Shown piece after piece: positions 18,836 to 64,000 of a stretch of 64,000 bases of DNA (position 1 is its first letter; each line of letters begins with the position of its first letter). Both the position numbers and the translations under genes were made by a program. Below the pieces are notes generated by a model. It saw only the letters and a program-made list of their open reading frames with translations. It had not been told where the DNA came from and did not search any database. The DNA is taken from NCBI GenBank assembly GCA_027886175.1, contig JAJNNQ010000011.1, forward strand, positions 6,138,001 through 6,202,000, given 5' to 3'. This DNA comes from Phylloscopus collybita (Eukaryota > Chordata > Aves > Passeriformes > Phylloscopidae).

Positions 18836-18863
18836 GCCGCCCGCAGAGCCCGCCACTCGCCTC

Positions 18864-18914
18864 GATTGGCTGGTTCTGCCGTCACTCCTGGGTCTGACTG
18901 CGCGCTGATTGGGC
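18864..18914 (-). promoter_or_regulatory. CRE/CCAAT promoter module, unit 1
   Basis: On the minus strand it reads CCAATCAGCGCGCAG, spacer, GAGTGACGGC, spacer, CAGCCAATC. Read on + it is a CGTCA half-site followed 20 bp later by CTGATTGG. The same module recurs at 36375, 36626, 53403 and 56102. It lies just upstream of a probable non-coding first exon of the ZNF-a unit. Confidence 0.6.
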
Positions 18915-18956
18915 AGAGCAGAGCGGGGACACGCCCACGTCTCGCCCCCATCGCGT

Positions 18957-19029
18957 AGAAGAGCCGCCATTTTTTGGATCCTCTGTGCGGAGGAGGCGGC
19001 GGCGGAGCTCGGAGGCGGCTCCGGCGCAG
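18957..19029 (+). other. Probable non-coding first exon, unit 1 (ZNF-a)
   Basis: A YY1-like GCCGCCATTTT at 18964 is followed by a donor GGCGCAG|GTGGAAG at 19030. The same donor context (CCGGCGCAG|GTGGGAG) is found in the CpG islands of unit 3 (53293, minus strand) and unit 4 (56249), each oriented towards the ZNF coding exon of its unit. Splicing is inferred, not shown. Confidence 0.45.
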
Positions 19030-19139
19030 GTGGAAGCCGCGCTGGGTTGTGCCGGGGCTCGGGGCTCGGGGCTCGGGGCTCGGGGCTGGCTGCGGGCGGA
19101 GGGGGCGGCAGGGGGCTCTGGCTGTGACTGGGTTGTGCC

Positions 19140-19420
19140 GTGTCCTCGTTAATATGCACCCCCCTTTTGTATAACATCCGATATTCCTGGCTCTGTTCAG
19201 GCTTTGTTCTTCTTCTCTGTGTTGAGGAATTCAGCAGGACCTTGGCTGAGCAGCAGTCCGTGTCAATGAGTAACATTTTCTGAAACTGATGAGTTTCTCC
19301 CGTTCCTTCCTTATCTCCAAGTCCCCGTCCCTCTCTCCGAGCAGATTTCAGTCACTGACTCTGTTTTTGCTTCCTGGTTCCTCTTTGGTTTTGGGATTAT
19401 TCTCAGTGACCTCAATTCTG
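19140..19420 (-). mobile_element. Truncated 3' LTR (U3 part), unit 1
   Basis: Matches U3 of the fuller LTR at 52660-53000 (minus strand here). The match stops abruptly at 19140, where CpG-island intron sequence begins, so the TATA, R and U5 parts are missing. Confidence 0.65.
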
Positions 19421-20422
19421 AGAAAAACGAAAATTCAATCTTAGAATATTTTCCAAAAGTTTTCCTGGCCATCAGCCAAGGAACACCCTGCACATTAATG
19501 CAGCCTTATCTGTGTGCTGTTCCTTTACTGAGGTACATACATATTCATGAGTTTCATGCTCTACTCAAACATTCTTGGCTGCTTTTGATGGTTTAGAAAT
19601 TTTCTTTGTTTTGGTTTTCTGCTCTGGCTTATCTACATCACATCCTGCAGATCAGGTCCTGCTCATGGATAATCTGATCCCATCCCACGGTGAAATGTTG
19701 TGTTCTTGGTTTGAGTGGGTTGGTGGGCCAGACTGAGGGGCTGGATCTGTCTCCTTGGTTCTTATTTTGAGGACAGCTTGTAATCTAATGATGCCATTGA
19801 AATGATCAGTGGGTTCTCTGGCTCCTGATATGAATTTGTTGGGGTTCCCAGGGGCTGGTCCGTGGTGTTGTGGGATTTGTTCTGGTGGCCGTTTCATCTT
19901 TTCCCCTTTTTTGGGTGCTCCATCCAGCCAGGGCTGCATCAATTTGTCTCTTTTCTGTAGTTAAATCATCACATTCTTGGATTCCCAACTGATTTCTCTG
20001 AACTTGTGGCAGCAGAAACACTCCACTGCTCTGATGCTCCCTGTGTGACACAGACAGGGACAGCACATGTTGGACTGGGGAGAGGGGTGATTGCCTCCCA
20101 CTTATTTTAGTGAAGCTTTCTCAACATTTTCCGTTTGCTGTTTCCCTTTGCAGCTGAACCAATTTCTGTTGCAGAGTCAGAGATCCTCACTCTGGGCTCT
20201 GCCTTTAGCTGTGCAAATTCTGTCTTTGTGAGCAGGCAGAGCTTGGGCTGAGGGACAAAGGGAATCAGCCCAATTCCTGCCCCAGGCAAGGAGCCCCTGG
20301 TGCATTGTCCACACTTTTCCCCAGCAGGGTTAATTTGCATTTCTAAAGCTCCTCTCCTGCCTGCCTGGGGGAATCTCTCTTCCTTGGCAGGCACTGAATG
20401 ACTCATGTGTGCCATACACAAT

Positions 20423-20458
20423 CTTTTTTTTTTTTTTTTTTGCTTTTTTTTTTTTTAG
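20423..20458 (+). repeat. Poly-T tract inside the ERV
   Basis: A T-run interrupted by GC. The corresponding inverted copy has an A-run at 51835-51853. Confidence 0.8.
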
Positions 20459-21837
20459 ACAATATTCTGTTAACTGTTTCAGCGTTAAAGTGTCACCTTT
20501 AAAGCTGTTCTGGTTTTGCAAAATGGAATCTCAAGGTGACCTTTGAAAAACTGATTTACCAAACTTTTCTGATCACTGAGAGCCACACACAAACACACAC
20601 AAAAACATTCCAAAGCAATCAAAGGTTTTCTACTTCTTCTCCTAAGACTACAAATTGATTCTCACACCCCTGGCCCAAATCTAAATGGCAATATAAAATT
20701 AGAATTATTGCAAAAAATATTCTGATTGTAATCTTTTATCTGAAATTGGAAAACCGCAGAACTCTTCAACAAAATCTTATTGTCAGAGACTCAAGGCATT
20801 ACTTGATTCTGGCCAGGATGGGCAACAGAAATCATTTCACCCACACATAGCCCGGTGTGCAGAGAAAATCATTCCATGACATGTGAGCTTTACTGGATTT
20901 TTCCTAAACTTTTTACAGTCTGAACCCATAGAAATCCCTTGGTTTGATGTTCATTGCTTCCAGGTTGCTGAGGTCTCAGGATTTGATTTCCTGTTGGACC
21001 CGGATTCCTCTGCCTCTGATGTTAATCAGGTCTGCACTCCTGGAATTCCTTCTCAGCCTTTTCCAGCCCAGGTGTCTGCAGCTCTTCCAGGGGCAGTGTC
21101 TGGGCTGGGTGTTGGTTGCTGGTTGCTGATGGTCGTTGATGTTTTGCTGATGGTCGTTCTCTCTGTGGAGATCTTTTGGGCTCTTCCCAGTCTGGTGAGA
21201 TGTTCAACTCATCTCTGCTGAGTGCTGTAACATCCCTTCAAATAAAACCTTGAAAATTCCTTTCCCCGGGGCAAAGGCCAACCGAGGCTGAGTGGAGAAA
21301 TGAAATCAAAAAAAATTTTAAAGTCGGTCTCTTTTCCACCCATATAAGCCCAGCCAGCCCAGAGTGTGAGTGTGGCTGAGGCCCAGAGTGGAATTCTCCC
21401 GGTGTCTCCCCAGCCCCTGTGGCAGTGCAGGCACAGAAAGCCCTGAAGCTGCAGCAGTGGCAGCAAGGATTGGCCCGCAGTGCCTGGAGATGCCAAGGGA
21501 GGGTGCCCAGGCAGAGCATTCCAGCAGAGGATCTGTGGGCAGGCACAGGGGCTTCCCCCGCTGTGGAGCCCTGGCTGCTGCTCCCTTGCCTTCAGTGCAG
21601 GCTCAGCCGTGGCCTGTTTGACATTCCCAGGCAATTCCAGTTCCTTTGCTCAGCCTGGGAGAGCCATGGCTGGGGCATCAATCATTTGGGGTTTTTATTT
21701 TCTCCAGCTTTGTTCTCTTTCTCGTGTCCATCCCATAACACTGAGGCTGTCTGGGGTTACAAAGTCACACAATGTTCTGGCTGGAGCAGAGAATCCTCAG
21801 TGCAGGTCCTGCAATTCCCTGTTAATCCTCAGAACTG

Positions 21838-22674
21838 TCACATCTCCTTTTTAGTCCTGAGTAAGGTTACTTCTGAGATTCCTTGGACCTTCTCTGGGTA
21901 AATACACCAGAAAATTTCAGCCAAAATATGTCCCAAATATTTAATCTTTTTCTCGACCACTTCTGCTTTTTTATCAAATACTCCAAGATGCTTTTTAGCC
22001 TGAAAACTGAGCCATTTCACAGAGGCTTCTTCTACCACTTCTTCTTGTCCTCCTCACTGGAGCTGGTGTCACCCACACCCTGCAATAACCCAATCCCTGG
22101 GGGTGAGGTGAATTCTTTTGATGTTTTCTGCAGTGCTTGCCCCAATCAGGCTGGTGCTTCCCTGCATCCCTGCAGCAGGACCGTCCATGTCTTTCCCATT
22201 TTCCCTTCTCCCTCTTGTTCCCACTCCAAGGCCAAACCCTGTTCACCACACTGTGTGAGTGGGCATCCCCAGAAAGCATCTTTTCCATCAAGGGCAGAAT
22301 GGGAGCAGTGTGAGGAGGGAACCTGGTTCCAGATGGTGTCAGGATCTGAGACTGGGTGGGGTGCCTGGGTTTCAGAATCTCGTTTATTGTTCTTAGGTCC
22401 TGCACCATTCTGTGGATTCCATCTGATTTCCTGACTGGCAGCACAGGAGCATTACAGGGAGAGACCCCTGGCTCCAAAAGCCCTGCCTTTCCCAGGGGCT
22501 CAATACCAGGCTGTGAGCCCTTCCTTCCCTCCCTGGGAATAGGGGATTGCTTTTAGACCCCACTTGTCCTGGTGGCTTCAGAGGAATTTGGAGAGGCTGG
22601 GGATCTGATTTTCCCAATTTCCCTGGGGCTGCCCACACTTCTGGGTTCACTTCAGCCCAGGCCTTGCCAGACAT
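21838..22674 (-). pseudogene. ERV reverse transcriptase remnant (gammaretrovirus-like pol)
   Basis: Three short frames with RT hallmarks: a WAAPGKLGKSDPQPLQIPL-type RT entry (22674-22560), CNAPVLPV and VQDLRTINE (about 22450-22380), and a KYLGHIL motif (about 21950). Frameshifts and stops separate them, and the catalytic YXDD region is not seen. Class I ERV pol; not functional. Confidence 0.8.
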
Positions 22675-22885
22675 TTGTCACCAAGGTACAGGAGAACTAG
22701 CCTGTGTATCACCTTTGACAATATTAATTTGCATTCCCAATTTAGCCGTCAAATCCCTTCCCAGTGAATGACAATCACATTTAGGAGGAAATGAAAATTC
22801 CTGCATTTCCAACCCATCCCCACATCTGTTAATAGTGGTTGAATAAAACACAGCTGCTCATCTTTCCCACTTATCCCATGAATAA

Positions 22886-23860
22886 TCAAAGACATTTTTG
22901 GCCTTTTCCCCCCTTAGGTGTGAGATTGAGAGTGGATGGAGAGGCCCCTGTGTCTGTGAGGAAAGGCCTCCTGTCGATGCAGAGCCACCCTGAATGTTCT
23001 CCAGGGCTCCAGTGCGGTGGGTCCCTGGTGTGCTGGGAGCTCTGCCACCCCTCCCAGTCCATGTCCCTGCAGGGGTGGACTTGCTGCTGGTGAGGGTGCT
23101 GCTGTCTGTGCTTGCAGTGTCCTTGTGGCCTGCAGCTGGCAGCCTGATTCCTTGCCAGGGGCTGTTTGGGTGGGCTCTCCCCTGACCAGGAGGGCAATGC
23201 CTCTGCCAGGTCCTTGTGGCCGAGCCGGTGCCCTGGGTGCTGGGGCCCCCTTGGGCCCTGGGCTTGATCCCTCAGGGGCTGTAGAAACTCTGCCATGGCC
23301 TTTGCCTTCCCCTTGGCCTTTTCCTCCTCCCTTCTTGCCTTCTTCCCCTGCTGTGCCTTTCTGACCAAGTGCTGCAGGGGCTTCTTCTGCCCCTCCTACA
23401 GCCCCCCTGAGTTCCTGTGGGTGCTCATCCTCTGACAGCTGCTGAGCTTTCTGCAAAACCATTCATTTCTGCAGTGCACCAAGCAAAGTCATTCAATGAT
23501 AATCTCGATCATTGCAGGTGGAATCCACATTTCCCGTCTTCTTCCTCTTTCCCATCAATCTTTTTCTTCCTGCAGCGATTCCTGCTGCTGCTTCTTTCCT
23601 ACACCATATTCCTGCACATTCTCCTTCACCCTTTCCCTTCCCAGCACACCAAAGCCATCCATCCCCTGCTGTCTAAATCCCTTCTTGACTTCCCTCATTG
23701 CCCCCTGTGTGTCCATGTCCTTAATTACCTCTGGGAGAATGTGCAAACTGCCTCGACATTCCCACAAGGGACCCTTCAGAGATATTTTGGGATCATCATC
23801 CCTTTTGCTGGGACCCCTTCCCGGCTTTCCCTTTTCCACCCTGCATGGGTGCCCTGCCAT
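22886..23860 (-). pseudogene. ERV gag-protease remnant, unit 1
   Basis: The minus-strand frame 23368-22886 carries a Lys/Arg/Glu-rich gag tail and ends in the aspartyl-protease motif DTGAS at about 22954-22940. An overlapping frame 23860-23555 is the upstream gag portion. The two are in different frames, so gag is broken. Copies: 48056-48966 (+), 58694-59550 (-) and a short piece at 38220-38400 (-). Confidence 0.75.
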
Positions 23861-23959
23861 GTTTCCTCCCTGAAGATCCCAGTGTCCTCCCTGATGAGAT
23901 TTTCAGTGCTCTCTCCCTGCTGACTCTTCCCAGACCGCCCTGATCTCTTGCTTGTGTTC

Positions 23960-24235
23960 AGTCTCTTGATTGTACCCCCTTCATATGCACCCCACTTCTA
24001 TCTGGGTAGGGATATTCACAGCTCTGTTCACTCTTTGTTCTTCTTCTACTCGAAGTTCACGAATGTAGCAGGACCTTGGCTGAGCAGCAGTCTGTGTGGT
24101 CAGTGAATAACATTTTCTGGAACTGAGGGCTTCTTCTGTCCCTTCCTTATGTCCAAGTGCCTGGCCCTGTCTCCAAGCAGATTCCCAGCATCTGTTTGTA
24201 AAGACACTTTCCTCTTCCTTTCATGTCCCTTTTTA
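23960..24235 (-). mobile_element. Diverged LTR-like block upstream of ZNF-a
   Basis: Resembles the U3 block at 19140-19330 (shared AGCAGGACCTTGGCTGAGCA, AGTAACATTTTCTG-like and TTCCTTAT words) but is more diverged. It sits where units 2 and 3 carry a candidate ZNF exon ('exon A'). Same arrangement at 59560-59810. Confidence 0.6.
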
Positions 24236-24419: not shown

Positions 24420-25220
<801 letters not shown>

Positions 25221-30766: not shown

Positions 30767-30768
30767 TT

Positions 30769-35291: not shown

Positions 35292-35397
35292 CGCGCTGCT
35301 CCGCTGCGGCCCCGCTCCCAGCCCGGACGCCGCTCCCAACTCTGGCCCCGCCTTCGGAACGCCTCCGGCCTCGCCATTGGCGCCGAGATTTCGTGCT

Positions 35398-35441: not shown

Positions 35442-35469
35442 GCAGATCCCGGTCTCGCAGGTTCGGACG

Positions 35470-36374: not shown

Positions 36375-36425
36375 GCCCAATCAGCGCGCAGCGAGGCCAG
36401 GAGTGACGGCACCATCAGCCAATGG
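36375..36425 (+). promoter_or_regulatory. CRE/CCAAT promoter module, unit 2 copy 1
   Basis: CCCAATCAGCGCGCAG, spacer, GAGTGACGGC, then CAGCCAATGG. Confidence 0.6.
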
Positions 36426-47826: not shown

Positions 47827-48369
47827 CCCTGCTTCTCCTTCCCTTCTCCTCCTGCCCCCAGGATTGATTGGGGACCCGAGAGTGTCCAGGAGACAGACGA
47901 GTGACAGATCAGGGGGGGCTGGGAAGAGTCAGCAGGGAGAGAGCACTGAAAATCTCATCAGGGAGGACACTGGGATCTTCAGGGAGTAAACAAGGCAGGG
48001 CACCCATGCAGGGTGGAAAAAGGAAAGCCAGGAAGGGGTCCCAGCAAAAGGGATGATGATCCCAAAATGTCTCTGAAGGGTCCCTTGGGAGAATGTTGAG
48101 GCAGTTTGCACATTCTCCCAGAGGTAATTAAGGACATGGACACCCAGGGGGGCAATTAGAGAAGTCAAGAAGGGATTTGGACAACAGGGGATGGATGGCG
48201 TTGGTGTGGTGGGAAGGGAAAGGGTGAAGGGCAGTGTGCAGGAATATGGTGAAGGCAAGAAGGAGCAGCAGGAATCTTGGGAAGAACAAGGCTGATGGAA
48301 AAGAGGAAGAAGATGGGGAATGTGGATTCCACCTGCAAGGATCCAGATTATCCTTGAATCTGACTTTGT

Positions 48370-48966
48370 TTGGGGTGCTGCAGAACTGAATGGATTTGCA
48401 GAAAGCTCAGCAGCTGTCAGAGGATGAGCACCCACAGGCACTCAGGGGGGCTGCAGGAGGGGCAGAAGAAGCCCCTGCAGCACTTGGTCACAAAGGCACA
48501 GCAGGGGAAGAAGGCAAGAAGGGAGGAGGAAAAGGCCAAGGGGAAGGCAAAGGCCATGGCAGAGTTTCTACAGCCCCTGAGGGATCAAGCCCAGGGCCCA
48601 AGGGGGCCCCAGCACCCAGGGCACCGGCTCGGCCACAAGGACCTGGCAGAGGCATTGCCCTCCTGGGCAGGGGAGAGCCCACCCAAACAGCCCCTGGCAA
48701 GGAATCAGGCTTCCAGCTGCAGGCCACAAGGACACTACAAGCACAGACAGCAGCACCCTCACCAGCAGCAAGTCCACCCCTGCAGGGACATGGACTGGGA
48801 GGGGTGGCAGAGCTCCCAGCACACCAGGGACCCACCGCACTGGAGCCCTGGAGAACATTCAGGGTGGCTCTGCATCGACAGGAGGCCTTTCCTCACAGAC
48901 ACAGGGGCCTCTCCAGCCACTCTCAATCTCACACCTAAGGGGGGAAAAGGCCAAAAATGTCTTTGA
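48370..48966 (+). pseudogene. ERV gag-protease remnant, unit 3
   Basis: Frame with the Lys/Glu-rich gag tail and protease DTGAS motif near its end, nearly identical to 22886-23368. Upstream gag lies in another frame, so it is non-functional. Confidence 0.75.
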
Positions 48967-51900
48967 TTATTCAGGGGCTAAGTGGGAAAGATGAGCAGCT
49001 GTGTTTTATTCAACCACTCTTAGCAGATGTGGGGATGGGTTGGAAATGCAGGAATTTTCATTTGCTCCTAAATGTGATTGTCATTGACTGGGAAGGGATT
49101 TGATGGCTAAATTGGGAATGCAAATTAATCTTGTCAAAGGTGACACAGAGGCTAGTTCTCCTGTACCTCTGTGACAAATGTCTGGCAAGGCCTGGGATGA
49201 AATGAACCCAGAAGTGTGGGCAGCCCCAGGGAAATTGGGAAAATCAGATCCCCAGCCTCTCCAAATTCCTCTGAAGCAACCAGGACAAGTGGGGTCTAAA
49301 AGCAATCCCCTATTCCTAGGGAGGGAAGGAAGGGCTGGCTCACAGCCTGGTATTGAGCCCCTGGGAAATGCAGGGCTTTTGGAGCCAGGGGCCTCTGAAG
49401 AAACTGGATGGATGGAGACCAGAAGGAAAGCAGGATTTTTAAGTGTTAAAAAACTGACAAACTGTGGCTCCTGTCCTGGACTGCCCAGAAAGGAAAAAAG
49501 AATTTGGATTGTATGAGGATGTAAAACACAGCCAGGCCAAAGGAATTCCTGGGCTAAAATGCTGAACCCAGTGGCCAGAGAGTGGCCTCATTGTCTGCAG
49601 AATTGTGCAGCCACAGCCTGAATGGGAACTGAGGCCTGACAACTGATGGCAGGAGAATCTCCTCAAGTCTGGCACCAACTCAAAGCTTTGAGAACCACAA
49701 GAGCTTCTAAAGGGGTGAGCAGTGCTGGATTATTACAGGATGGAACTTGTTCAGTGGCACAGGAGGATTTAGAATTGAGGAGAGGGGGTTTAACCCAGCC
49801 TCCTGCTGGAACAGCCTGCACAGGGGGCTGGGAAGAAACCCATGGCTGCATCCAAGTGAGAGAGATTTGGGCCGGGGCTGTGAGATATTCATGGGACACA
49901 CCCACCTTGGGACTTTGCTGCTGACAACATCCAACCAGGACATTGGGTCCTGCCCAAGGAGTGGGAAGGAGGAGCAGGATGGGAGGCTGCTGATATGGGA
50001 AATGTATATGGATATGAAAATGCAGAATTTTAGAAACATATAAAGTGCTTAAACAGGTGAAGGGGAGAACAGAAATATATACAGCTCATTTAGCAATTGT
50101 GTAAAAGAAGAAAAACAAGTTGTACCAGAAGGCACAGGAGTGTAACTTGTAAGGCAGGACCCATGAACAGAATCCAAAGGAATTTGGGTGCCAGGTAAAG
50201 GCCACAGAGAGAAGATGTATTGTTAAAACTCACTGAAGCGGGACTTAGGTATTGTGAAGACCCAACAAAGCAGAACCAGTTGATTAACAAACCAGCAAGA
50301 ACCAGGCTGCTGGTTTCAGCCGGGACAAACTGACCTGGGAATTCCCCAAACCTTCTCTGCACCTGCTCAGAGAGGGAGGTCAAAGACTGAACACCGAGGA
50401 AGAATTCTGACCTCATCAGCACACTCCTGCCCGCGACCACCAGAAGGCGTGGCACCACAAAAGGCTGATTGTAATATAAAGGGCAAGAAGGCAGAGAATG
50501 TGCAAAGGATGGGTGGGCAGGGAGGTGCAGCTTTGTGGGGTCTGAGTGCATTTAAACCTGGAACCTGTCTCCACCAGGTCGGCATCAGTGGTGGAAAGAT
50601 CCCGTAGGCGTCCCAGCAGGAATAAAACAAACCTGCTTTACAATTCCTGACTGTGCAGTCCTGATCCTGCAATTCCCCACGGCTGAGCCTGCACTGAAGG
50701 CAAGGGAGCAGCAGCCAGGGCTCCACAGCGGGGGAAGCCCCTGTGCCTGCCCACAGATCCTCTGCTGGAATGCTCTGCCTGGGCACCCTCCCTTGGCATC
50801 TCCAGGCACTGCGGGCCAATCCTTGCTGCCACTGCTGCAGCTTCAGGGCTTTCTGTGCCTGCACTGCCACAGGGGCTGGGGAGACACCGGGAGAATTCCA
50901 CTCTGGGCCTCAGCCACACTCACACTCTGGGCTGGCTGGGATTAGATGGGTGCAAAATAGACCGACTTTAAAATTGTTTTTTATTTCATTTCTCCACTCA
51001 GCCTCGGTTGGCCTTTGCCCCGGGGAAAGGAATTTTCAAGGTTTTATTTGAAGGGATGTTACAGCACTCAGCAGAGATGAGTTGAACATCTCACCAGACT
51101 GGGAAGAGCCCAAAAGATCCCCACAGAGAGAACGACCATCAACAAAACATCAACGACCATCAGCAACCAGCAACCAACACCCAGCCCAGACACTGCCCCT
51201 GGAAGAGCTGCAGACACCTGGGCTGGAAAAGGCTGAGAAGGAATTCCAGGAGTGCAGACCTGATTAACATCAGAGGCAAAGGAATCCGGGTCCAACAGGA
51301 AATCAAATCCTGAGAACTCAGCAACTTGGAAGCAATGACCATCAAACCAAGGGATTTCTATGGGTTCAGACTGTAAAAAGTTTAGGAAAAATCCAGTAAA
51401 ACTCACATGTCATGGAATGATTTTCTCTGCACAGCGGGCTATGTGTGGATGAAATGATTTCTGTTGCCCATCCTGGCCAGAATCAAGTGATGCCTTGACT
51501 CTCTAACACTAAAGATATTGTTGGAGAGTTTTTGTTTTTCCCACAGTTTCAGTGACCAGATTATCATTAAAATAATTTTTTGCAATATCCTACTTTTGTA
51601 TCGTCAGTTTGGTTTGGGCCAGGGCTGTGAGGATCAATTTTTAGTCCTGGGACAAGAAGCAGAAAAACCTTGATTGCTTTGGAAATGTTTTTGTGTGTGT
51701 GTGTGGCACTTAGTAATCTCAAAATTTTGGTACATGGGTTTTTCAAAGCTGATCTTTAAGTTCCATTTTGGAAAACCAGAAAAAGCTGTAACGGTGACCC
51801 TTAAATGAATAAAAAGTTAACAGACTATGTAAAGAAAAAAAAAAAAAAAAAAAGAAAACATGCAGATTGCCCAAGGGCCAGATATGAGTCATTAAGTGGC

Positions 51901-52659
51901 TGCCCAGGAAGAGAAGCTCCAGTTCCAGGCAGGCAGGAGAGGAGCTTTAGAAATGCAAATTAACCCTGCTGGGGAAAAGTGTGGACAATGCACCAGGGGC
52001 TCCTTGCCTGGGGCAGGAATTGGGCTGATTCCCTCTGTCCCTCAGCCCAAGCTCTGCCTGCTCACAAAGACAGAATTTGCACAGCTAAAGGCAGAGCCCG
52101 GAGTGAGGATCTCTGACTCTGCAACAGAAATGGGTTCAATTGCAAAGGAAAACATCAAACCGAGATTGTTATGAAAACTTCACGTAAAAAAGTGTCTGCG
52201 GGGGGGAATCATCCTTCTCCCCACTCTAACATGTGCTGGCATTGTCGGTGTTGTACTGGGGCTATCAGACCTCTGGGTGTTTTTAGCTACCGCAAGTTCA
52301 CCCAAATCAGCTGGAAATCAAAATTTACCATTTAATCAGAGAAAAGCGGTCAATTGACGCAGCCCAGGCAGGAGGGAGCGCCTCAGAAATGGGGAAAAGA
52401 TGAAACGGCCACCAGAACAAATCCTACAACACCACGGAGCAGCTCCTGGGACCCCAACGAATTCAGATCAGGATCCAGAGAACCCGGTGAGCATTCCAAT
52501 GGCATAATTGAAACGGTTACAAAAGCACAAGGAATGAAGTCACTGAGAATAATCCCAAAACCAAAGAGAAACCAGGAAGAAAAAACAGAGTCAATGAGTG
52601 AATCTGCTTGGAGATAGGGCCGGGAACCTGGAGATAAGGAAGGAAAGGAGAAACCATCA

Positions 52660-53000
52660 GTTTCAGAAAATGTTACTCATTGACACGGACTGCTGCTCAG
52701 CCAAGATCCTGCTGAATTCCTGAACTCGGAGAAGAAGAACAAACCCTGAACAGAGCCAGGAATATCGGATGTTATACAAAAGGGGGGTGCATATTAACGA
52801 GGACATGCAGCAATAGGATCGGGAAGGCTGAACTTTCCAAGGACGTTCGCCAGCGGGCAAAGGGAGAGGGAGATGCAGAAGGGAAAATCAGGATAAAAAG
52901 GAGGCTGCGAACTACAACAATTGGAGAGACCGCATGGCAAATGCCGCATGGCCTCTCCCTTTGTTCATGAATAAAGTCACTTTTACAGGACTCCTCTGGC
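52660..53000 (+). mobile_element. 3' LTR of the unit 3 ERV (best-preserved copy)
   Basis: A polypurine tract GGAAGGAAAGGAGAAACC (52637-52654) is followed by U3, a TATA box GGATAAAAAGG (52891-52901) and AATAAA (52969-52974). Copies on the minus strand: 57046-57400 (full) and 19140-19420 (U3 only). Confidence 0.75.
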
Positions 53001-53029: not shown

Positions 53030-53530
53030 CCAATTTTCCCGCTCAGGCCCGGGGACAGCGCAGCCGCCTCCGTCCTACCCACAGGAACCGGGACGAGCCA
53101 GCGCTGCTCCGGCCCCGGCTCCTGCCCAGGCACCCGCGGGAAGGAGACCGCGGGCAGCCGCTCCCGCAGCGCCCTCAGGGCACGGGGAACACGGCGCGGA
53201 CACGGCACAACCCAGCCACAGCCAGAGCCCCCTGCCGCCCCCTCCGCCCGCAGCCAGCCCCGAGCCCCGGCACAACCCAGCGCGGCTCCCACCTGCGCCG
53301 GGGCCGCCTCCCCGGGCTCCGGCCGCTGCCGCCGCTCCTGGGCCCGCACTGAGAGCCGAAAATGGCGCCGCTCCTACGGCACGACCGCGCTCTGCCCGCT
53401 CTGCCCAATCACCGTGCAGCGAGAGCCAGAAGTGACGGCACCATCAGCCAATGGCAGCGAGGCAGGGGCGGGCTCTGCACACGGCCCAGCCCCGCCCCGC
53501 GCTCTCAGGCCCCGCCCCCGGGCTGTCTGA
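53030..53530 (-). promoter_or_regulatory. CpG-island promoter region, unit 3
   Basis: Inverted counterpart of 56230-56545. Includes the shared donor CCGGCGCAG|GTGGGAG (exon end 53293, minus strand), a GGCGCCATTTTC initiator-like site near 53365 and the CRE/CCAAT module at 53403. Points towards ZNF-c. Confidence 0.6.
53403..53454 (+). promoter_or_regulatory. CRE/CCAAT promoter module, unit 3
   Basis: GCCCAATCACCGTGCAG, spacer, AAGTGACGGC, then CAGCCAATGG. The first CCAAT flank has one change relative to the other copies. Confidence 0.6.
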
Positions 53531-54848: not shown

Positions 54849-55835
54849 CTACCAGCAATTGGATCTGCCAGACACGGAGGAGCTTTCAGAACTTTCTCTC
54901 AGAATCCACCCCGTAGCACGGCCACCACCAACACCAGGCTGTGCCAACCCAATAGAGCCCCCAAAATGGGCTCCTAGATAATCAAAAGCTCTGGTGCATT
55001 CCAAAATGGGGATGGAGATGTCTCGGGGCTCAGGTGTGCCCAAAAATGAGGCCCCAGCTGAGGACGTTCTCTGCTTGGCTGAGCGCTGCCTGAGGGCTGG
55101 GGCTGCAGCAAGGGGGGGACACCCTCCAGCGGGGATGTCCCACAGACACGGGACCCCCCAGAAGCCCCTCGGAACCCCTGGGGCTGGGATGGCCCTGCCT
55201 GGATGCCAGGGGCCACCAAAACTGTTCTGTCCCTGCCCTCTGCAGCTGCACAGGGAGAGGAAATACAAGGGAAGGCCCAGGAGCTGAGAGAAGGATCGGG
55301 AGAGATCCTTCCCCGAGCAGCAGCACAGGGACAAGAGACCCAGCCCGGTGTAGTGGTTTTGGATGTGCTCGTGTGCCTTCAGGTGGGAGTTCTGGCTGAA
55401 GCCCTCCCCACATTCCCCACATTTGCAGGGCTTTTCCCCGGTGTGGATCCAGCGCTGCTGGATCAGGCTGGAATTCTCCCTGAAGCTCTTTCCACACCCC
55501 CCACACTTGCAGGGCCTCTCCTCAGTGTGGCTCTGGCGGTGACTGATGAGGCTGGAGCTCCGGCTGAAGCCCTTCCCACATCCCAAGCACTTGTGGGGCT
55601 TCTCCCCGCCCTGAGGCTTCTCCACCAGCTCTGAGCTCCGGCTGGATCTGCGGCTGCCTTCCCAGCACAGGAAGGGCTTTTCCTCCTCGCAGCCCCCCGG
55701 GCTGGGTTTACAGCCCCTCCTCCTGCACCTCCGGGGCTTTTCCTCCCCATGGCATCGTCCCTGTGCAGTGGGGCTGCTCCAAACAGCCTCTCCCACAAGG
55801 TTCTCTGGCAGGGCTTTGTTCTCCCCGGGCTCCAT
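54849..55835 (-). CDS. Damaged C2H2 zinc-finger gene (ZNF-e), 3 fingers plus unrelated tail
   Basis: From ATG 55835 ([13 protein letters not shown]) in an exon that probably starts at 55849 after CTCCCTCAG. The N-terminal basic segment is like ZNF-a to d, but the MEPGE leader marks another subfamily. Finger 1 is complete. Finger 2 has Gln for the first zinc-binding His (LIQQRWIH). Finger 3 has abnormal histidine spacing (AHEHIQNH). The frame then runs on for about 230 residues with no finger-like sequence to a stop at 54849-54851, through what looks like former 3' UTR and repeat. Either a decaying gene or a short finger protein with a new tail. It faces ZNF-d across a shared CpG island. Confidence 0.6.
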
Positions 55836-56035: not shown

Positions 56036-56250
56036 GGGAAAGGAGATCCCGGCACAGAGACTCTGCCAATGGCGGCTGGGGGCTGTGCTTCTCCCCGCGC
56101 TGCCCAATCAGCGCACGAGTAACAAGAGTGACGGCAGATCCAGCCAATCACGAGGAGTGGCGGGCTCTGCTGCACTGCACGGACTCGCCTCCATTTCGCT
56201 GACTCCGCCATTGCTCGGAAACCTCGGCTGAGGAGCGGCCCCGGCGCAGG
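56036..56250. promoter_or_regulatory. Bidirectional CpG-island promoter between ZNF-e (-) and unit 4 (+)
   Basis: Contains the CRE/CCAAT module 56102-56149 (CCCAATCAGCGCACG, GAGTGACGGC, CAGCCAATC), CCGCCATT at 56206 and the unit 4 first-exon donor CCGGCGCAG|GTGGGAG at 56249/56250. ZNF-e begins on the minus side, the ZNF-d unit on the plus side. Confidence 0.6.
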
Positions 56251-57045
56251 TGGGAGCCGCGCTGGGTTGTGCCGGGGCTCGGGGCTGGCTGCGGGCGGAG
56301 GGGGCGGCAGGGGGCTCTGGCTGTGGCTGGGTTGTGCCGTGTCCGCGCCGTGTTCCCCGTGCCCTGAGGGCGCTGCGGGAGCGGCTGCCCGCGGTCTCCT
56401 TCCCGCGGGTGCCTGGGCAGGAGCCGGGGCCGGAGCAGCGCTGGCTCGTCCCGGTTCCTGTGGGTAGGACGGAGGCGGCTGCGCTGTCCCCGGGCCTGTG
56501 CGGGAAAATTGGCATCGCCAGAGGTTTCTGTGCCCGAAGGAGCCAGAGGAGTCCTGTAAAAGTGACTTTATTCATGAACAAAGGGAGAGGCCATGCGGCA
56601 CTTGCCGTGCGATCCCTCCAATTGTTATGGGCAGCCTATTTCTAAAATTATTTTATTAACTCTTTACACGTTTAATTGTCATCTTTAAAGCTCTTCTCGT
56701 TTTGCAAAATGCAACGTAAAGGTGAACTTTGAAAAACCCATATACCAAAATTTTTAGATTCCTAAGTGCCACACACAAACCATTGCAAAGCAATCAAGGT
56801 TTTTCTTCTTCTCCTAAGACTAAAACTTGGTTCTCACAGCCCTGGCACAAACCTGAGAATTCAAAAGCAGGATTATTGCAAAAAAAATTATTATTATGGT
56901 GTCATCTTGTCACTGAAACTGTGGGAAAAACAAAAATGCTCCAACAATATCTTTTGTGTTAGAGAGTCAAGGCATCACTTGATTCTGGCCAGGATGGGCA
57001 ACAGAAATCATTTCACCCACACATTGCCCGGGGTGCAGAGAAAAT

Positions 57046-57400
57046 CATTCCAGAGGAGTCCTGTAAAAGTGACTTTATTCATGAACAAAGGGAGAGGCCA
57101 TGCGGCATTTGCCATGCGGTCTCTCCAATTGTTGTAGTTCGCAGCCTCCTCTTTATCCTGATTTTCCCTTCTGCATCTCCCTCTCCCTTTGCCCGCTGGC
57201 GAAGGTCCTTGGAAAGTTCAGCCTTCCCGATCCTATTGCTGCATGTCCTCGTTAATATGCACGCCCCTTTTGTATAACATCCGATATTCCTGGCTCTGTT
57301 CAGGCTTTGTTCTTCTTCTCCACGTTCAGGAATTCAGCAGGACCTTGGCTGAGCAGCAGTCCGTGTCAATGAGTAACATTTTCTGAAACTGATGAGTTTC
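57046..57400 (-). mobile_element. LTR, unit 4
   Basis: Minus-strand copy of 52660-53000, with the TATA box complement near 57150 and, at the AATAAA position, the variant plus TTTATTC near 57074. Confidence 0.7.
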
Positions 57401-57759
57401 TCCCGTTCCTTCCTTATCTCCAAGTCCCCGTCCCTCTCTCCAAGCAGATTCACTCACTGACTCTGTTTTTGCTTCCTGGTTCCTCCTTGGTTTTGGGATT
57501 ATTGTCAGTGAGCTCAGTTCTGAGAAAAACGAAAATTCAATCTTAGAATATTTTCCAAAAGTTTTCCTGGCCATCAGCCAAGGAACACCCTGCACATTAA
57601 TGCAGCCTTATCTCTGTGCTGTTCCTTTACTGAGGTACATCCATATTCATGAGTTTCATGCCTATTCAAACATTCCTGGCAGCTTTTGATGGTTTAGAAA
57701 CTTTTCTTTTTTTATTTTTCTGCTCTGGCTTATCTACATCACATCCTGCAGATCAGGTC

Positions 57760-58560
57760 AATCTCTTTTATTTCTTCTTGTGGCCTCATCCTGTTGTTTC
57801 ACACTTCCCAGAGAGCGAACAGTTCACAAACTCTTCTCTCCTTCTTCTCTGCTGCTCTGGTTTGTGTGGCCCTTATCTCATCCCTTGGAGAGGTCAGTCA
57901 GCAGCTGTGGGAAACAACCTGATTGCTTTATACAGTTCTCTGGGTTACACACAAGGATTTGACCATTTTCTATTTTGCTCAGGCCTACAGTACAATACAT
58001 TCATCCCATGATCAGTTCTAGAAGCTGTCAGGTGTCTACATCAACATCAAATACTCATCCCACTGCTGCTTCCATGAGTTACACGGTGCAGACTTCAAAT
58101 GAGCAATGAGGTTAAATGAGCAAGCAGCTCAAAGGGATTCTAAACTGCACTGTGCTTACAATCAATAACCACAGATAAAGACCAGCACACAAATGTGAAA
58201 GCCAATATTCTGGGGTCATTTTCAGCAATTCCCTGTCCTTTTGTAGCCCTTTGTGGCTCAGGAGGCCTGGCTGCCACCTGCATCCCCTTGCTCAGCTGCT
58301 GACTGAGCTGCACTCAGCAAGGTGTCCTGCATGGCCCAAAGATGAGAGTTGCTGTAGCACAGAAGAGGAGGAAGAGCATTCGTTTAACCCATGGTGTGCC
58401 AGGGAACCCCGACACCGTGTCCCATTCCCATCCTTTCCAGGTTTGGGCTGGAACATGAGCTGCTTTCTTATTTCCTTTGTTCTCTGTTTCACCACTTTCC
58501 CCTTGTCATCTCTTTGCCAGCAGTATCTTGAGTCATTTAATTTTCCACACTGTGCTCCTC
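57760..58560. other. Sequence unique to unit 4
   Basis: No counterpart in units 1-3. Open frames are short and unrecognised. It may be an insertion of another element, but no ends or target duplications were found. Confidence 0.4.
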
Positions 58561-58693
58561 CTCCTGCTCATGGATAATCTGATCCCATCCCACAGTGAAA
58601 TGTTGTGTTCTTGGTTTGAGTGGATTGGTGGGCCAGACTCAGGGGCTGGATCTGTCTGCTTGGTTCTTATTTGGAGCACATCCTGTAATGTAA

Positions 58694-59550
58694 TTATTGC
58701 TTGCAGTGTCCTTGTGGCCTGCAGCTGGCAGCCTGATTCCTTGCCAGGGGCTGTTTGGGTGGGCTCTCCCCTGCCCAGGAGGGCAGTGCCTCTGCCAGGT
58801 CCTTGTGGCCGAGCCGGTGCCCTGGGTGCTGGGGCCCCCTTGGGCCCTGGGCTTGATCCCTCAGGGGCTGTAGAAACTCTGCCATGGCCTTTGCCTTCTT
58901 CCCCTTGGCCTTTTCCTCCTCCCTTCTTGCCTTCTTCCCCTGCTGTGCCTTTGTGACCAAGTGCTGCAGGGGCTTCTTCTGCCCCTCCTGCAGCCCCCCC
59001 GAGTGCCTGTGGGTGCTCATCCTCTGACAGCTGCTGAGCTTTCTGCAAAACCATTCATTTCTGCAGCGACCCAAACAAAGTCATTCAAGGAAAATCTCGA
59101 TCCTTGCAGGTGGAATCCACATTTCCTGTCTTCTTCCTCTTTTCCATCATCCTTTTTCTTCCCACAGCGATTCCTGCTGCTGCTTCTTGCCTTCACCATA
59201 TTCCTGCACACTGCCCTTCACCCTTTCCCTTCCCAGCACACCAACACCATCCATCCCCTGCTGTCCAAATCCCTTCTTGACTTCCCTCATTGCCCCCCTG
59301 TGTGTCCATCTCCTTAATTACCTCTGGGAGAATGTGCAAACTGCCTCAACATTCTCCCAAGGGACCCTTCAGAGATATCATCAGCCCTTTTGCTGGGACC
59401 CCTTCCTGGCTTTCCCTTTTCCACCCTGCATGGGTGCCCTGCCATGTTTCCTCCCTGAAGATCCCAGTGTCCTCCCTGATGGGATTTTCAGTGCTCTCTC
59501 CCTGCTGACTCTTCCCAGACCGCCCTGATCTCTTGCTTGTGTTCAGTCTC
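58694..59550 (-). pseudogene. ERV gag remnant, unit 4
   Basis: Same Lys/Glu-rich gag tail as units 1 and 3, ending at the junction near 58700 before the protease motif. Frames are broken. Confidence 0.7.
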
Positions 59551-60052
59551 TTGATTGTACCCCCTAAATATTCACCCCACTTCTATCTGGGTAGGGATAT
59601 TCACTCTTTGTTCTTCTTCTACTCGAAGTTCACGAATGTAGCAGGAACTTGTCTGAGCAGCAGTCTGTGTGGTCAGTGAATAACATTTTCTGGAACTGAG
59701 GGCTTCTTCTGTCCCTTCCTTATGTCCAAGTGCCTGGCCCTATCTCTAAGCAGATTCCCAGCATCTGTTTGTAAAGACACTTTCCTCTTCCTTTCATGTC
59801 CCTTTTTACAGGAAGTCCTTTTGATTTAGAAGAGGTTTTGGCTGAGTCTTGTTATTTGGGGAGTTTTTGATCTGTGTCTTGATATTTGGAGGACTTTTGG
59901 GCTGAATCTTTGTATTTTGGAGGTTCTTACAGACACAAGGTGCCCAATGATTTTTTGAGATGGACTTGGGCAAGGAGGAACCCCCAGCCTAAGGTGCTCT
60001 CCTCTTGTTTTCTCCCCCAAACAAGGATTTGTCATTCCCAAGGAGTGTCCGG

Positions 60053-60793
60053 ATGGAGGAGGAGGAAAAGCCCCAGAGCTCCCGCAGGAGGAGGGGCTGC
60101 AAACCCAGCCCAGGGAGCTGCGAGGAGGAAAGACCCCCCCTGTGCCAGGAGGGCGTCCGGAGATCCAGCCGGAGCTCAGAGCTGGAGGAGAAGCCTGATG
60201 GAGGGGAGAAGCCCCACAAGTGCTTGGAATGTGGGAAGGGCTTCAGCCAGAGGTCCAAGCTGATCCAGCACCAGATGATCCACACTGGGGAACGGCCCTA
60301 TGAGTGTGGGGAGTGTGGGAAGAGCTTCAGCCTGAAGGGCCATCTTAGGAAACACCAGATGATCCACACTGGGGAAAAGCCCTACAAGTGTGGGGAATGT
60401 GGGATGAGCTTCAGAGAAAGCTCAGACCTGATCAAGCACCAGGTGATCCACACTGGGGAAGGGCCCTACACCTGCTTGGAATGTGGGAAGGGCTTTGGAT
60501 CCAGCTCCAACCTGAGAAGACACCAGCTCATCCACACTGGGGAGAGGCCCTACGAGTGTCCTGATTGTGGGAAGAGGTTTCAGACCAGCTCCAGTCTCCT
60601 CGTCCATCAGCGGATTCACACGGAGGAGAGGCCCTTCCGCTGCCCCGACTGCGGGAAGGGCTTCAAGCAGAACTCCACCCTCACTCTCCACGGGCGCATC
60701 CACACTGGGGAGAGGCCCTACGAGTGTCCTGAGTGTGGGAAGAGCTTCTCACAGAGCTCTGCTTTGACCAGACACCAACGGAGTCACCACTGA
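60053..60793 (+). CDS. C2H2 zinc-finger protein ZNF-d, 7 fingers (unit 4)
   Basis: Closest in structure to ZNF-a: 246 residues from ATG 60053 (MEEEEKP), coding exon probably from 60026 after an AAG acceptor, and the same LTR-like block in place of exon A. Seven complete fingers. Contact residues (-1,2,3,6): Q-S-K-Q, L-G-H-K, E-S-D-K, S-S-N-R, T-S-S-V, Q-S-T-L, Q-S-A-R. None equals the ZNF-a finger in the same place, although the scaffold is almost identical. The linker after finger 3 is TGEGP. Transcription probably starts in the CpG island at 56.2 kb; no KRAB or SCAN domain is seen. DNA target unknown. Confidence 0.85.
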
Positions 60794-60882
60794 GGGAAGC
60801 CCAGGGAGTGCCCTGAGAGCGGGAAGAGCTTCGTGCGCTGCTCCAGCTCCATCCCCCTGTGGGAGGATCGGTGTTGGATGAT
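60794..60882 (+). pseudogene. Fossil zinc finger after the ZNF-d stop
   Basis: KPRECPESGKSFVRCSSS follows the TGA, as in ZNF-a and ZNF-b. Confidence 0.7.
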
Positions 60883-60985
60883 CCCCAGTGACCCCTGTTG
60901 GGCAGAGCCATGGTGATCGGTGGTCCTGGTGATCCCTGTTGGGAAGACACCTGGCTGGGTGGGCTCCACATCTTCCTGTGTCCTG

Positions 60986-61668
60986 AATGTGTGTTCTATT
61001 TGATGTGTTGAAAGCAGCTGGGGAGATGATTATCGTTGTTGTGGTGTATTTTTATTGTGTTTCCAATTCCAGCTCAGTTTTAATGCTCAGTTTTATACAC
61101 CACACCCTCCATATTTTGTATTGTTACAGTATATTTTATCCCTAATGGATTTTTCCTTTCCCCTGTATTGTTAGATCTGCCCTGGTTGTCTATCTTCCCT
61201 CGACCTGCCCTTCCCTCCTCCTACAGAATTGTCAATCCTTCCCTCACCCTGCCCCTTCTTCCAGACCCTTCCCTGTCAATCCCCCAACCTTCAACGCCCC
61301 AGTGGTTGGTTTAAACTGTTCCCTCCCCTTGTGTTCTTTCATTGCTCTGTGCATTGTACTCCCCGCCTTATGTTCCTCCCCCATGTCACCCTCATTGGTT
61401 GGAAATTGTATCCTCTCCCCAGACCTCCCCCACTTATAAGCGCCTGCAAGCCCAGGTTCTGTGCCTTTTTCTGTCCCTGACCCTCTGGGCAATAAACACC
61501 TTTGGAAATCACCCAGAAGGCCTCTCCCTGTCCCTTGTCCCTGCCCTGGACGTGTGCCACCTGTGCTATAGAGCAGCTGTGCCCTGCAGCTGCACCCCGG
61601 ATTGCCTGGCTTTCTGGGGGCAGCCCACTCCTGGCGCCGGTGCCGGGAGCTGGCTGGGCTGAAGGACA
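60986..61668 (+). mobile_element. ERV LTR, block B
   Basis: TGTGTGTTCTA start and AATAAA at 61491-61496; copy of 41166-41841. The end reads GGCTGAAGGACA instead of GAAGAACA. Confidence 0.65.
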
Positions 61669-62205
61669 CCGGCATCGTGTCCTGTCCCCATATCTTTGCC
61701 TGAGAGCCCCTGAATTTTCTAAACTATAATAATTTGGAGGGATGGAATTCTCCATTCCAAGGGAGGCTCTGGATTTTCCTGGCACACACCTGTCTTTCAA
61801 ACTAACATCATTCTCTGAGTTAGTTACAATATAAAAGTCAGTTATTATATAAACCTTAGCTATAATACTAATACTATAAAGCATTTCAGCATTGTGCAGT
61901 CTCTCTTTTAATATTTTTCTAAGGCCTATGATATAAAATCAATTTATTATGCTGCCATTTCTGTCGGCTATGCAGTGCACACACAAACTGATAATGTTAC
62001 GCCAAAAAGCAGCTGAAAGGAATTATAATGTGTACTGTATGAAAATAATTGTGATCAATGACAATGTGCAAAACCTGACATGTGAATGCAAAAACCAATA
62101 TTGTATTGTCATTGATATTGCCATTGATATTGTCATTTATAACCCCCTCTGCTTCAGGCACCGAGGGGGCTCATTCACCCCCTGTCCCCGCATCCCTGAG
62201 TGTCC

Positions 62206-62262
62206 TCAAGTGCCCCTGAGTGTCCCTGAACATTCCTGAGTGTCCCCGAGTGTCCCCAGTGA
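62206..62262 (+). repeat. Minisatellite CCCTGAGTGTC, contracted copy
   Basis: About five units; counterpart of the expanded array at 42385-42540. Confidence 0.75.
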
Positions 62263-62718
62263 GGTCACCCCAGGAATTCCCATCAGGATTTGGAACAGTT
62301 TCAATGAAAATCTCCAGAACATTCCCCAATTTTGTCTCAAACACCATGCAGGCAGAGAAGAGGGGACAAGTGACACCAGCCATGTTCCCGATGATGCCAT
62401 CACCCCAATGATGTCCCCAAGCTGTTAAGAATGGGGCCAGCAGACCAGCTCCTTTGAAAAGGCCTTTATTGAAAAACAGCGCTGGGTGGGGGCCCGAGGG
62501 GTCGCGCACACGGCCACTGCTCCCGCTGGACGGCGCCGAGGAGGACACGGCAGAGCTGGGGCTCCCGTCCCCACCAGAGTCCCTGGGAAGTCACTTGTAG
62601 GGTCGTGGTCCGGGGCTGTCACACTGGCCCGGTACTGTCCGGTCATGGCGAGGAGTCGGAGGTCTTTAGTTGGTAGCCGGATGTTCACCACTGTTTTCCT
62701 CAGCTGAAGAAGTCACTT

Positions 62719-63174
62719 TCAGTCTTTGGTGTTGTAATGGCTCGTTGCCTTTGGGGTCGTTACCCTGAAATATTGTCCCATCATTCCCTGGTGTCTCCTC
62801 ATTTGCATGTGCGCCATCTTGGGGAGCAGTGGCAGTGGTTCCCGACGGGAAATGGATTCCGGTGTACAATGGAAGGGGATCAATGGAGTGAAATCATCAA
62901 TAACAGGTAAGTAATTAACGTCCTTTAACATGAACAGGTGTTGTGGTGTGCCTTTAAGGTTTTCAAGGTGGGCTCCCTTTTGGAGATTCTTCCCCTCCCC
63001 CGGGGTAGGTTTTTCCCAGCCAACCCTGAGGGAATGATTATAATACACCGGGTTTTCCAAGCAACCTGAGATTCTGCAGGGGCTGCCCATCGAAGGAATT
63101 GGCCCCGGCAGAGAGGGCCCACCCCTCCTCACAGGTGATTTGACCTTTAGGCTGCCCTTTAGCCCTCGGGTCAT
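62719..63174 (-). other. Unrecognised 151-codon open frame, copy B
   Basis: Counterpart of 42983-43438, here starting with ATG. A few amino-acid differences (for example CLENPVYY for CLVNPVYY). No family recognised. Confidence 0.25.
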
Positions 63175-64000
63175 GCCCTGTCCCTCTCTGAGAGGTAGGC
63201 TGTGTGCCCTCCCCCTTCCCCCTCTCCCAGGTGAAAACCCAGCACAGGCACATGGTCGGGGTTCTGCTCAGGGCAGTCACACGGTTCAGAAGTGCTGCTG
63301 TAACTGGAATAAAATCTCTGCACAAGACTCCTGAGGCAGATCCGTTTCCTTTCTCCACTGATTCATCCAACCCCTCTGAAGGAGCCATGCAGGATTCATC
63401 TTGCTACATTTACCCCGGGTCCTACGCTGCCTGAAACAAGCCTGGACTTGTCCGAGGGGTCTGTGCCTGTGTTAGCAGTGCAGGGAGAGGATCCTTTTGG
63501 GACTGTTATAAATGCACATTTTAGAGCTGGCTTTTCGCAAATATTGAAATGAATGTTATACATATAGTGTAAGAAGGTTTTACTGTATTTCCTTTTATTT
63601 GTGGAATTTAAAAATATAACGAAGGTATATTTTCAGATTGTAACAAAGTAGAGATGGGGGTTGTTGGTTTTCTTTTTTAACGCCTCAACTAGATAGAAGA
63701 CAGAAGGCATGTCTGGAATTCCTGAACTAAAGATTTCTGATAAAGAACAATTAAGCCTTTGAAAGTTTGAATCTTCAGAAGACAGATTTACAACATACAT
63801 CTAGACTGTGTGGTATCCCACAGATAAACTGTATGCGTAGGGGGGTCTTGAAACCAAAATGAATATTTGAATCATGCATTAGCTTATATAAATATGTAAC
63901 ACCAAGACATTTAAACACCAAAGAATTTAGAATGGGCGGTGTGTTGCTTTTCACCGTCAGCTGAGAAGCTATCATTTTTGTCTCCTTATCTATTTTTATT

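What the first reader, a model, noticed from the sequence alone, without database searches (positions are those of the whole stretch)
18850..64000. Four-copy [CpG promoter - antisense ERV - zinc-finger gene] duplicon around one MHC class I gene, with one copy inverted
Units at 18.85-25.5 (+), 36.06-44.8 (+), 46-53.5 (-) and 56-64 kb (+) share promoter, ERV, ZNF exon and flanks. Units 3 and 4 face each other head to head around 53.5-56 kb. The ERV predates the duplications, since a gag scrap survives even in unit 2. This couples ZNF copy number to MHC-region rearrangement.
Basis: partly seen in the sequence, partly recalled or inferred. Interest (0 to 1): 0.8.

Follow-up and report, generated by a model that had tools for sequence, protein, structure and literature searches.

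The report
Songbird MHC inside zinc-finger gene array
The repeated zinc-finger units seen around one immune gene are a tiny sample of a multi-megabase array of paired zinc-finger genes at a songbird chromosome end, in which MHC class I genes appear to be copied together with a zinc-finger neighbour facing the other way.

Summary
The units are real: CpG promoter, antisense ERV remnants and a C2H2 zinc-finger (ZNF) exon at about 18.8-25.5, 36.1-44.3, 46.0-53.5 (inverted) and 56.1-64 kb, plus a fifth, decayed ZNF at 55.4-55.7 kb. "Four-copy duplicon around one MHC-I gene" is wrong. The window lies on a 6.37-Mb contig starting in telomeric repeat. A 23-mer of the ZNF exon occurs 767 times in the genome (control 0), and each window unit has closer relatives elsewhere. 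Inversion is the rule: 108 of 143 neighbouring ZNFs are opposite in strand, 72 by shuffling. The MHC-I gene and ZNF unit 2 form a divergent pair; their intergenic module adjoins 16 of 17 MHC-I loci on the contig, so the pair looks co-duplicated. No KRAB was found on this contig. DNA-contact codons of the fingers show omega 1.62, other finger codons 0.39, though finger exchange contributes. Function (DNA binding, perhaps transposon control; co-regulation with MHC-I) is inferred. ZNFs beside songbird MHC genes were known; the nearest paper could not be read.

The parts
18843..19148 (+). U1 CpG promoter / first-exon region with a CCAAT-GTGACG-CCAAT module (starts 18865, minus strand)
19149..24184 (-). 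U1 antisense ERV remnant (coordinate range): LTR-like blocks 19149-19347 and 23980-24183 (77.6% identical), RT piece within 21995-22552, gag/protease-like frame 22886-23462
   Evidence: direct repeat; RT, E 5.8e-9; 15 copies of the gag-like scrap in 248 kb, itself included, 96.6-100%
24420..25220 (+). U1 ZNF exon, 7 fingers, open
32208..35291 (-). MHC class I gene, exons 1-5 (ATG 35291; cytoplasmic exons not worked out)
35190..36760 (.). MHC-I / ZNF divergent intergenic module: MHC-I exon 1 and its promoter (CRE and CCAAT by eye), minisatellite, ZNF CpG promoter with two CCAAT-GTGACG-CCAAT modules (36377, 36628)
   Evidence: full length at 16 places including itself, 92-100%
38234..38401 (-). 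U2 ERV scrap, 168 bp, 97.6% to U1 23779-23946; outside the gag-like frame
38937..39854 (+). U2 ZNF exon, 8 fingers, open; divergent partner of the MHC-I gene
41164..44264 (+). U2 3' flank shared with U4 (60986-63996)
46397..47398 (-). U3 ZNF exon, 9 fingers, open
47906..52805 (+). U3 ERV remnant (coordinate range, strand opposite to the U3 ZNF): gag-like piece 48364-48966, LTR-like block 52535-52805
53038..53498 (-). U3 CpG promoter region, module at 53405
55360..55746 (-). U5: fifth ZNF, decayed (one canonical and two altered fingers by eye), divergent partner of U4; like pairs at C11:907 kb, C11:2405 kb and C115:727 kb (91.6-92.1% over 368 of 387 bp)
56066..56640 (+). U4 / U5 CpG promoter with CCAAT-GTGACG-CCAAT module at 56104
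57244..59757 (-). U4 ERV remnant (coordinate range): LTR-like blocks 57244-57511 and 59600-59757, gag-like scrap from 58698
59993..60793 (+). U4 ZNF exon, 7 fingers, open

Best explanation
Shown: the finding is a small piece of a ZNF/MHC array whose members occur from 0.66 to 6.34 Mb of a 6.37-Mb contig that starts in telomeric repeat. The repeated element is an arm of roughly 10 kb (CpG promoter, intron carrying dead antisense retrovirus-like remnants, C2H2 finger exon, 3' flank; upstream coding exons not determined), and arms mostly alternate in orientation as divergent pairs. MHC class I genes stand in this lattice next to the same divergent intergenic module at 16 of 17 loci of the contig. 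Inferred: the ERV inserted before the spread and was copied as a passenger; the MHC-I/ZNF pair was duplicated as one module; growth went by unequal exchange, conversion and long-range copying. Also inferred: the ZNF proteins are DNA-binding factors that keep the finger framework and change the DNA contacts, most simply to follow changing targets such as mobile elements, acting without KRAB; and the MHC-I/ZNF promoters may be co-regulated.
For: Copy number: 23-mer 767 at <=2 mismatches, 513 exact, controls 0. Relatives elsewhere: the 39 non-self hits listed for the U2 exon, U3 and the U2 3' flank include no window unit, nor do the 39 non-self near-full-length places for the U4 promoter; for U1, U4 ranks 31 of 40. 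Alternation: 108 of 143, shuffle mean 71.9, max 94 of 10,000 (max 97 in a second run); 17 of 18 steps among full N-terminal exons in 248 kb, 19 of 21 if U5 and two ZNFs of another type are counted (hits). Module: full length at 16 places, 15 on C11 and 1 on C109; of 17 C11 MHC-I loci 14 have it full length, 2 broken, 1 not. The four best non-self relatives of the U2 ZNF exon all adjoin MHC-I loci. KRAB: 9 hits in the genome, none on C11. Contact codons omega 1.62 (bootstrap 1.33-2.12), other finger codons 0.39 (0.29-0.52), 80 pairs of 24 genes. Promoter module: 14 in 248 kb, 0 in the same sequence reversed.
Against: Synonymous divergence at contact codons is also raised (0.242 against 0.101), so finger shuffling or conversion can mimic diversifying selection. 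In the tree of 31 N-terminal exons only 1 branch is starred; the 5 MHC-paired ZNFs need 2 changes (shuffled mean 4.8, 0 of 500 as low): 4 group at 91/80, unstarred, and 1 lies elsewhere. A ZNF at the far end of the module was seen for 7 of 17 C11 MHC-I loci; for 9 only the promoter module, for 1 neither. Counting only exact-match ZNFs, 4 of 6 MHC-I loci in 0.66-2.96 Mb have a divergent ZNF neighbour. Class II B loci do not show it: 6 of 16 have any divergent 5' neighbour, 4 of these class II. One full-length module copy (3.98 Mb) has no MHC_I hit. No expression, binding or read data.
Confidence: 0.8

Rival explanations
1. A local four-copy segmental duplication of promoter-ERV-ZNF around one MHC-I gene.
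For: The four units align with flanks and one is inverted.
Against: Each unit has closer relatives elsewhere than in the window, for U3 by a small margin; 767 matches of the ZNF 23-mer.
Confidence: 0.04
2. Assembly artefact: haplotypes or repeats placed side by side inflate the array.
For: High-copy repeats are hard to assemble and no reads could be inspected. PMC10349553 (abstract and passages) says that songbird MHC alleles can be quite divergent and that assemblers misclassify haplotypes there, so divergence alone does not exclude it.
Against: Window units differ by 3.7-7.8% in the N-terminal exon and have relatives megabases away; no N in the 248 kb; fingerprints differ between most of the 33 ZNFs listed; alternation over 2.3 Mb.
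Confidence: 0.1
3. The ZNF units are decaying repeats that spread like a macrosatellite, with no selected protein function.
For: Extreme copy number; dead ERV passengers; a decayed member, U5.
Against: All 18 full N-terminal exons of the 248 kb that are not cut by its edge run into open frames of 4-14 fingers, and so do 12 of 12 distant loci picked by similarity; framework codons omega 0.39.
Confidence: 0.12
4. MHC-I genes and ZNFs are merely interspersed; the divergent pair hitch-hikes without regulatory meaning.
For: Class II B loci sit tail to tail with a ZNF instead (14 of 16); any gene in an array gets copied.
Against: 16 of 17 C11 MHC-I loci keep the same intergenic region; separate pieces of it at 81-87% lie by both C79 MHC-I loci, 2 of 3 on C32 and, some 15 kb off, 1 of 3 on C80. 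This shows co-duplication, not co-regulation.
Confidence: 0.45

Closest known systems
Zebra finch MHC BACs (Balakrishnan et al. 2010, PMC2907588; passages read)
   Same: Class II clones with numerous zinc-finger-like genes, gag and pol; high LTR content; the authors speculate that retroviral sequence aided duplication. They say red-winged blackbird sequences show a similar pattern.
   Different: No array layout in the passages. Here an ordered, contig-scale array of alternating ZNF arms and an MHC class I/ZNF divergent module.
Chicken MHC-Y (PMC9635633; abstract and passages read)
   Same: Class I genes with ZNF loci amid retroelements; the four ZNFY genes lie in roughly 40-kb inverted sequences.
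   Different: Four KRAB-bearing ZNFY and 45 class I loci there; here hundreds of ZNFs, no KRAB hit on the contig, and class I in the minority.
Passerine long-read MHC contigs (PMC7875000; one passage read)
   Same: ZNF family genes (with PAK1) are the most common other genes on passerine contigs with many MHC loci.
   Different: No arrangement of the ZNF genes in the passage read.
Great reed warbler MHC (Westerdahl et al. 2022, not held; known from PMC10349553, abstract and passages read)
   Same: Closest named MHC-I protein comes from this species (87%); 15 open MHC-I genes over a 5.5-Mb MHC region.
   Different: The key paper could not be read; whether it reports the ZNF lattice is unknown to me. 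The main text of PMC10349553 has 0 occurrences of zinc finger or ZNF.
Mammalian KRAB-ZNF clusters (recalled)
   Same: Clustered C2H2 genes whose contact residues diversify.
   Different: No KRAB found here; alternating orientation; MHC genes inside the array.

Membership tests
C2H2 zinc-finger gene | Tandem C2H2 fingers in an open frame | tested here: met
   Pfam PF00096 and PF13465 in U2 and U3; 7, 8, 9 and 7 fingers in U1-U4
KRAB-ZNF (KZFP) | KRAB domain upstream of the fingers | tested here: not met
   9 KRAB hits in the genome, 8 on C78 and 1 on C145, none on C11 (six frames, all 32 first-look candidates scored)
MHC class I | alpha1/alpha2 and alpha3 domains, signal and TM exons, spliced gene | tested here: met
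   PDB 7zqi E 3.5e-170
MHC class I, classical | Peptide-anchor residues conserved; broad expression | tested here: inconclusive
   87% to a great reed warbler MHC-I. By eye, against anchor positions that I recall, K146 is R and W147 is L; the 7zqi protein has the R but keeps the W (alignment). Expression not testable
Gammaretrovirus-like ERV | pol homology | tested here: met
   RT fragment of U1: E 5.8e-9 to 8wus_E (Gag-Pol), about 1e-8 to MMLV RT chains; Pfam none at E 5
Gammaretrovirus-like ERV | Two LTRs with TG..CA ends and target-site duplication | tested here: inconclusive
   205-bp direct repeat 77.6%; canonical ends not seen by eye, no duplication shown
Segmental duplication / gene array | Many copies with aligned flanks at >=90% identity | tested here: met

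The most novel reading that the evidence does not exclude
Songbird MHC class I number grew by riding a zinc-finger gene amplifier: a divergent MHC-I/ZNF pair with a shared CpG/CCAAT control region is the unit of duplication, so that antigen presentation and a fast-evolving KRAB-less DNA-binding repertoire are copied, and perhaps switched on, together.
Probability: 0.3. Interest if true: 0.85.

Novelty: new variant of a known kind. Interest (0 to 1): 0.62.

Why it matters
Why songbirds have so many MHC genes is an open question. If MHC-I genes are copied as arms of a ZNF array, their number follows from the array's own growth, which can be tested by comparing array length and MHC-I number across songbird assemblies. 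It also points to a large ZNF expansion without detectable KRAB on its contig, in a genome with 9 KRAB hits: a candidate alternative to the mammalian KZFP system.

Tried and rejected
Local duplicon: rejected by relatives elsewhere. Gag label for the U2 scrap: rejected, since it aligns outside the gag-like frame. A domesticated gag-like frame: 15 copies, pN/pS 1.71, 0.99 and 0.58 by frame (codons with one difference only); the gag/protease-like frame is the one at 0.99, and the one at 0.58 carries 2-3 stops in every copy, so no convincing constraint. Divergent pairing for class II B: not the rule (6 of 16); instead 14 of 16 have a convergent ZNF 4.8-7.2 kb downstream. One search scored 150 of 211 class II candidates, and two of the 16 are weak fragments. 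Monophyly of MHC-paired ZNFs: not shown. Likeness of the CCAAT-GTGACG-CCAAT module to the MHC SXY box: looked at by eye, spacing differs, not pursued. Rfam and tRNA scans: none. Paper searches: 10; no listed title names an MHC-I/ZNF divergent module or an alternating ZNF array. Only listings and the abstracts and passages named were read (also passages of PMC10360169 and PMC11373659). Westerdahl 2022 was not held.

Dropped before counts: the 17 of 18 alternation leaves out U5 and two ZNFs that match the N-terminal probe only in part (6303 and 6309 kb); with them it is 19 of 21. One search listed only open frames with at least two fingers. One search used exact matches only, which miss part of the 767.
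Full report
Observation. Self-alignment confirms the four units and their inversion. The alignments are mosaic: U1 and U4 agree over the ZNF end (94.1%, 2306 bp), U1 and U3 over part of the ERV (95.0%, 1494 bp), U2 and U4 over the 3' flank (91.7%, 3116 bp). U2 shows only 168 bp of the ERV. A fifth ZNF, decayed, lies on the minus strand at 55360-55746 and shares a CpG promoter with U4. The ERV in U1 carries a retroviral RT fragment on the strand opposite to the ZNF. The gag/protease-like frame has no Pfam or PDB match and three unnamed relatives at E 0.1 or better among 32 candidates of similar length in the protein database.

Where the window lies. The genome (1.25 Gb, 517 contigs) places the window at C11:6138001-6202000. 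C11 is 6,365,960 bp; its first 10 kb is telomeric repeat (549 non-overlapping matches of three CCCTAA units). The bird is not named; its MHC-I protein is 87% identical to one of Acrocephalus arundinaceus and 86% to one of Sylvia borin, so a songbird near the sylvioids is my inference.

Scale. A 23-mer from the ZNF exon occurs 378 + 389 = 767 times at up to 2 mismatches and 264 + 249 = 513 times exactly; the reversed pattern gives 0. Similarity searches scored 40 candidates out of 1274, 1132, 1077 and 2844; 32, 33, 38 and 40 of the 40 places lie on C11, the rest on C20, C65, C80, C109, C115 and C515. Those lists are capped.

Not a local duplication. For U2's exon, U3 and U2's 3' flank none of the 39 non-self hits lies in the window. 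For the U4 promoter no other window unit is among the 40 near-full-length places. For U1 U4 appears at rank 31 of 40. In a set of 31 N-terminal exons (19 of the 248 kb, 12 distant) each unit's nearest relative is outside the window: U1 99.2% against 96.3% at best inside, U2 98.4 against 94.7, U3 95.1 against 94.3, U4 98.0 against 96.3. For U3 the margin is small.

Lattice. The forward listings give 70 plus and 74 minus exact-match ZNFs from 0.66 to 2.96 Mb; where one search also lists the other strand (to 1.52 Mb) it agrees. Neighbours are opposite in 108 of 143 cases against a shuffle mean of 71.9 (max 94 in 10,000); median gaps are 10.3 kb (divergent) and 12.6 kb (convergent). In the 248 kb from 6118001 to the contig end (no N) the 19 full N-terminal exons alternate in 17 of 18 steps (hits); the single break, U1 then U2, is where the MHC-I gene stands on the minus strand. 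Adding U5 and two ZNFs of another type gives 19 of 21, the second break being U3 then U5.

MHC-I module. The region from MHC-I exon 1 to the ZNF CpG promoter (35190-36760) recurs full length at 16 places including itself (15 on C11, 1 on C109; 92-100%), and broken at 2 more on C11 (40 of 640 candidates scored). Of the 17 MHC-I loci on C11, 14 have it full length, 2 broken, 1 (3.865 Mb) not; one full-length copy at 3.98 Mb has no MHC_I hit. On C79 (2 loci), C32 (2 of 3) and C80 (1 of 3, some 15 kb off) separate pieces were listed at 81-87%; one C32 locus shows only the MHC side. The four best non-self relatives of the U2 ZNF exon all adjoin MHC-I loci, against 6 of 40 in the whole list, self included. 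Two of them share U2's fingerprint almost exactly and two do not, so fingers change while the pairing stays. The ZNF partner itself was seen for 7 of 17 loci.

MHC class II B. C11 also holds many class II B loci (150 of 211 candidates scored). Of 16 listed in 0.66-2.96 Mb, 14 have an exact-match ZNF tail to tail 4.8-7.2 kb downstream, and 2 have a divergent ZNF as 5' neighbour, at 14.3 and 44.8 kb. So the divergent module belongs to class I. A snowfinch gene model joins a ZNF of this kind to a C1-set domain (P0055) that looks class II-like by eye; this hints at similar adjacency in another songbird family, if it is not just a run-on prediction.

ZNF genes. All 18 full N-terminal exons of the 248 kb not cut by its edge lead into open frames of 4-14 fingers; U5 does not. 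Two further ZNFs of another type are open, and so are 12 of 12 distant loci chosen by similarity. KRAB hits number 9 in the genome and none lies on C11. Contact codons have pN 0.352 and pS 0.242, the rest of the finger pN 0.041 and pS 0.101 (80 pairs with equal finger number, at least 5 fingers and at least 75% framework identity, 24 genes). The raised pS at contact codons means that exchange of fingers contributes. The promoters carry a CCAAT-GTGACG-CCAAT module, 14 in 248 kb and 0 in the reversed sequence.

Mechanism. Shown: order, orientation, copy number, recurrence of the MHC-I/ZNF intergenic region, the ERV scrap repeated with the units (96.6-100% among 15 copies, no convincing constraint). 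Inferred: the ERV as an old passenger; exchange and conversion between arms as the motor; DNA binding to changing targets as the selected role; co-regulation of the pair. I give more than 0.9 to the architecture, about 0.4 to a transposon-control role and about 0.3 to co-regulation.

Known work. Zinc-finger genes and ERVs beside songbird MHC genes are known (PMC2907588, PMC7875000, passages), and chicken MHC-Y has four KRAB-ZNF genes in inverted sequences (PMC9635633, abstract and passages). I did not find the alternating lattice or the MHC-I/ZNF module in what I read, but the closest paper, Westerdahl et al. 2022, was not held.

Noticed in passing
window 6701-12067 (+): Frames with weak HYDIN/CFAP65-like Ig (ASH) domain hits (best E 2.5e-5, below the curated cut-offs): a cilium-type gene between the ZNFs at 6118 and 6162 kb.
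   Followed up: partly
window 27234-27668 (-): A second ERV piece with a clear Gag_p24 domain (E 1.1e-24), outside the units, between U1 and the MHC-I gene.
   Followed up: no
window 33700-36050: G-rich minisatellite fills MHC-I intron 1 and the region upstream; pieces of it recur by other MHC-I loci and may lengthen the gene at some.
   Followed up: partly
C11:0.66-2.96 Mb: MHC class II B loci sit tail to tail with a ZNF at two preferred distances, about 5 and 7 kb (14 of 16 listed loci).
   Followed up: partly
C20: Another contig with class II B loci, MHC_I-like loci of weak score (E 2.6e-6 to 8.9e-4) and the same ERV junction at 90-91%.
   Followed up: no
C65, C115, C109, C36, C44, C54, C117: MHC_I alpha2-like fragments, most with a single in-frame TAG, looking like a dispersed pseudogene family.
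   Followed up: no
protein P0055: A snowfinch gene model joins a ZNF of this kind to a C1-set domain, possibly a run-on prediction.
   Followed up: partly
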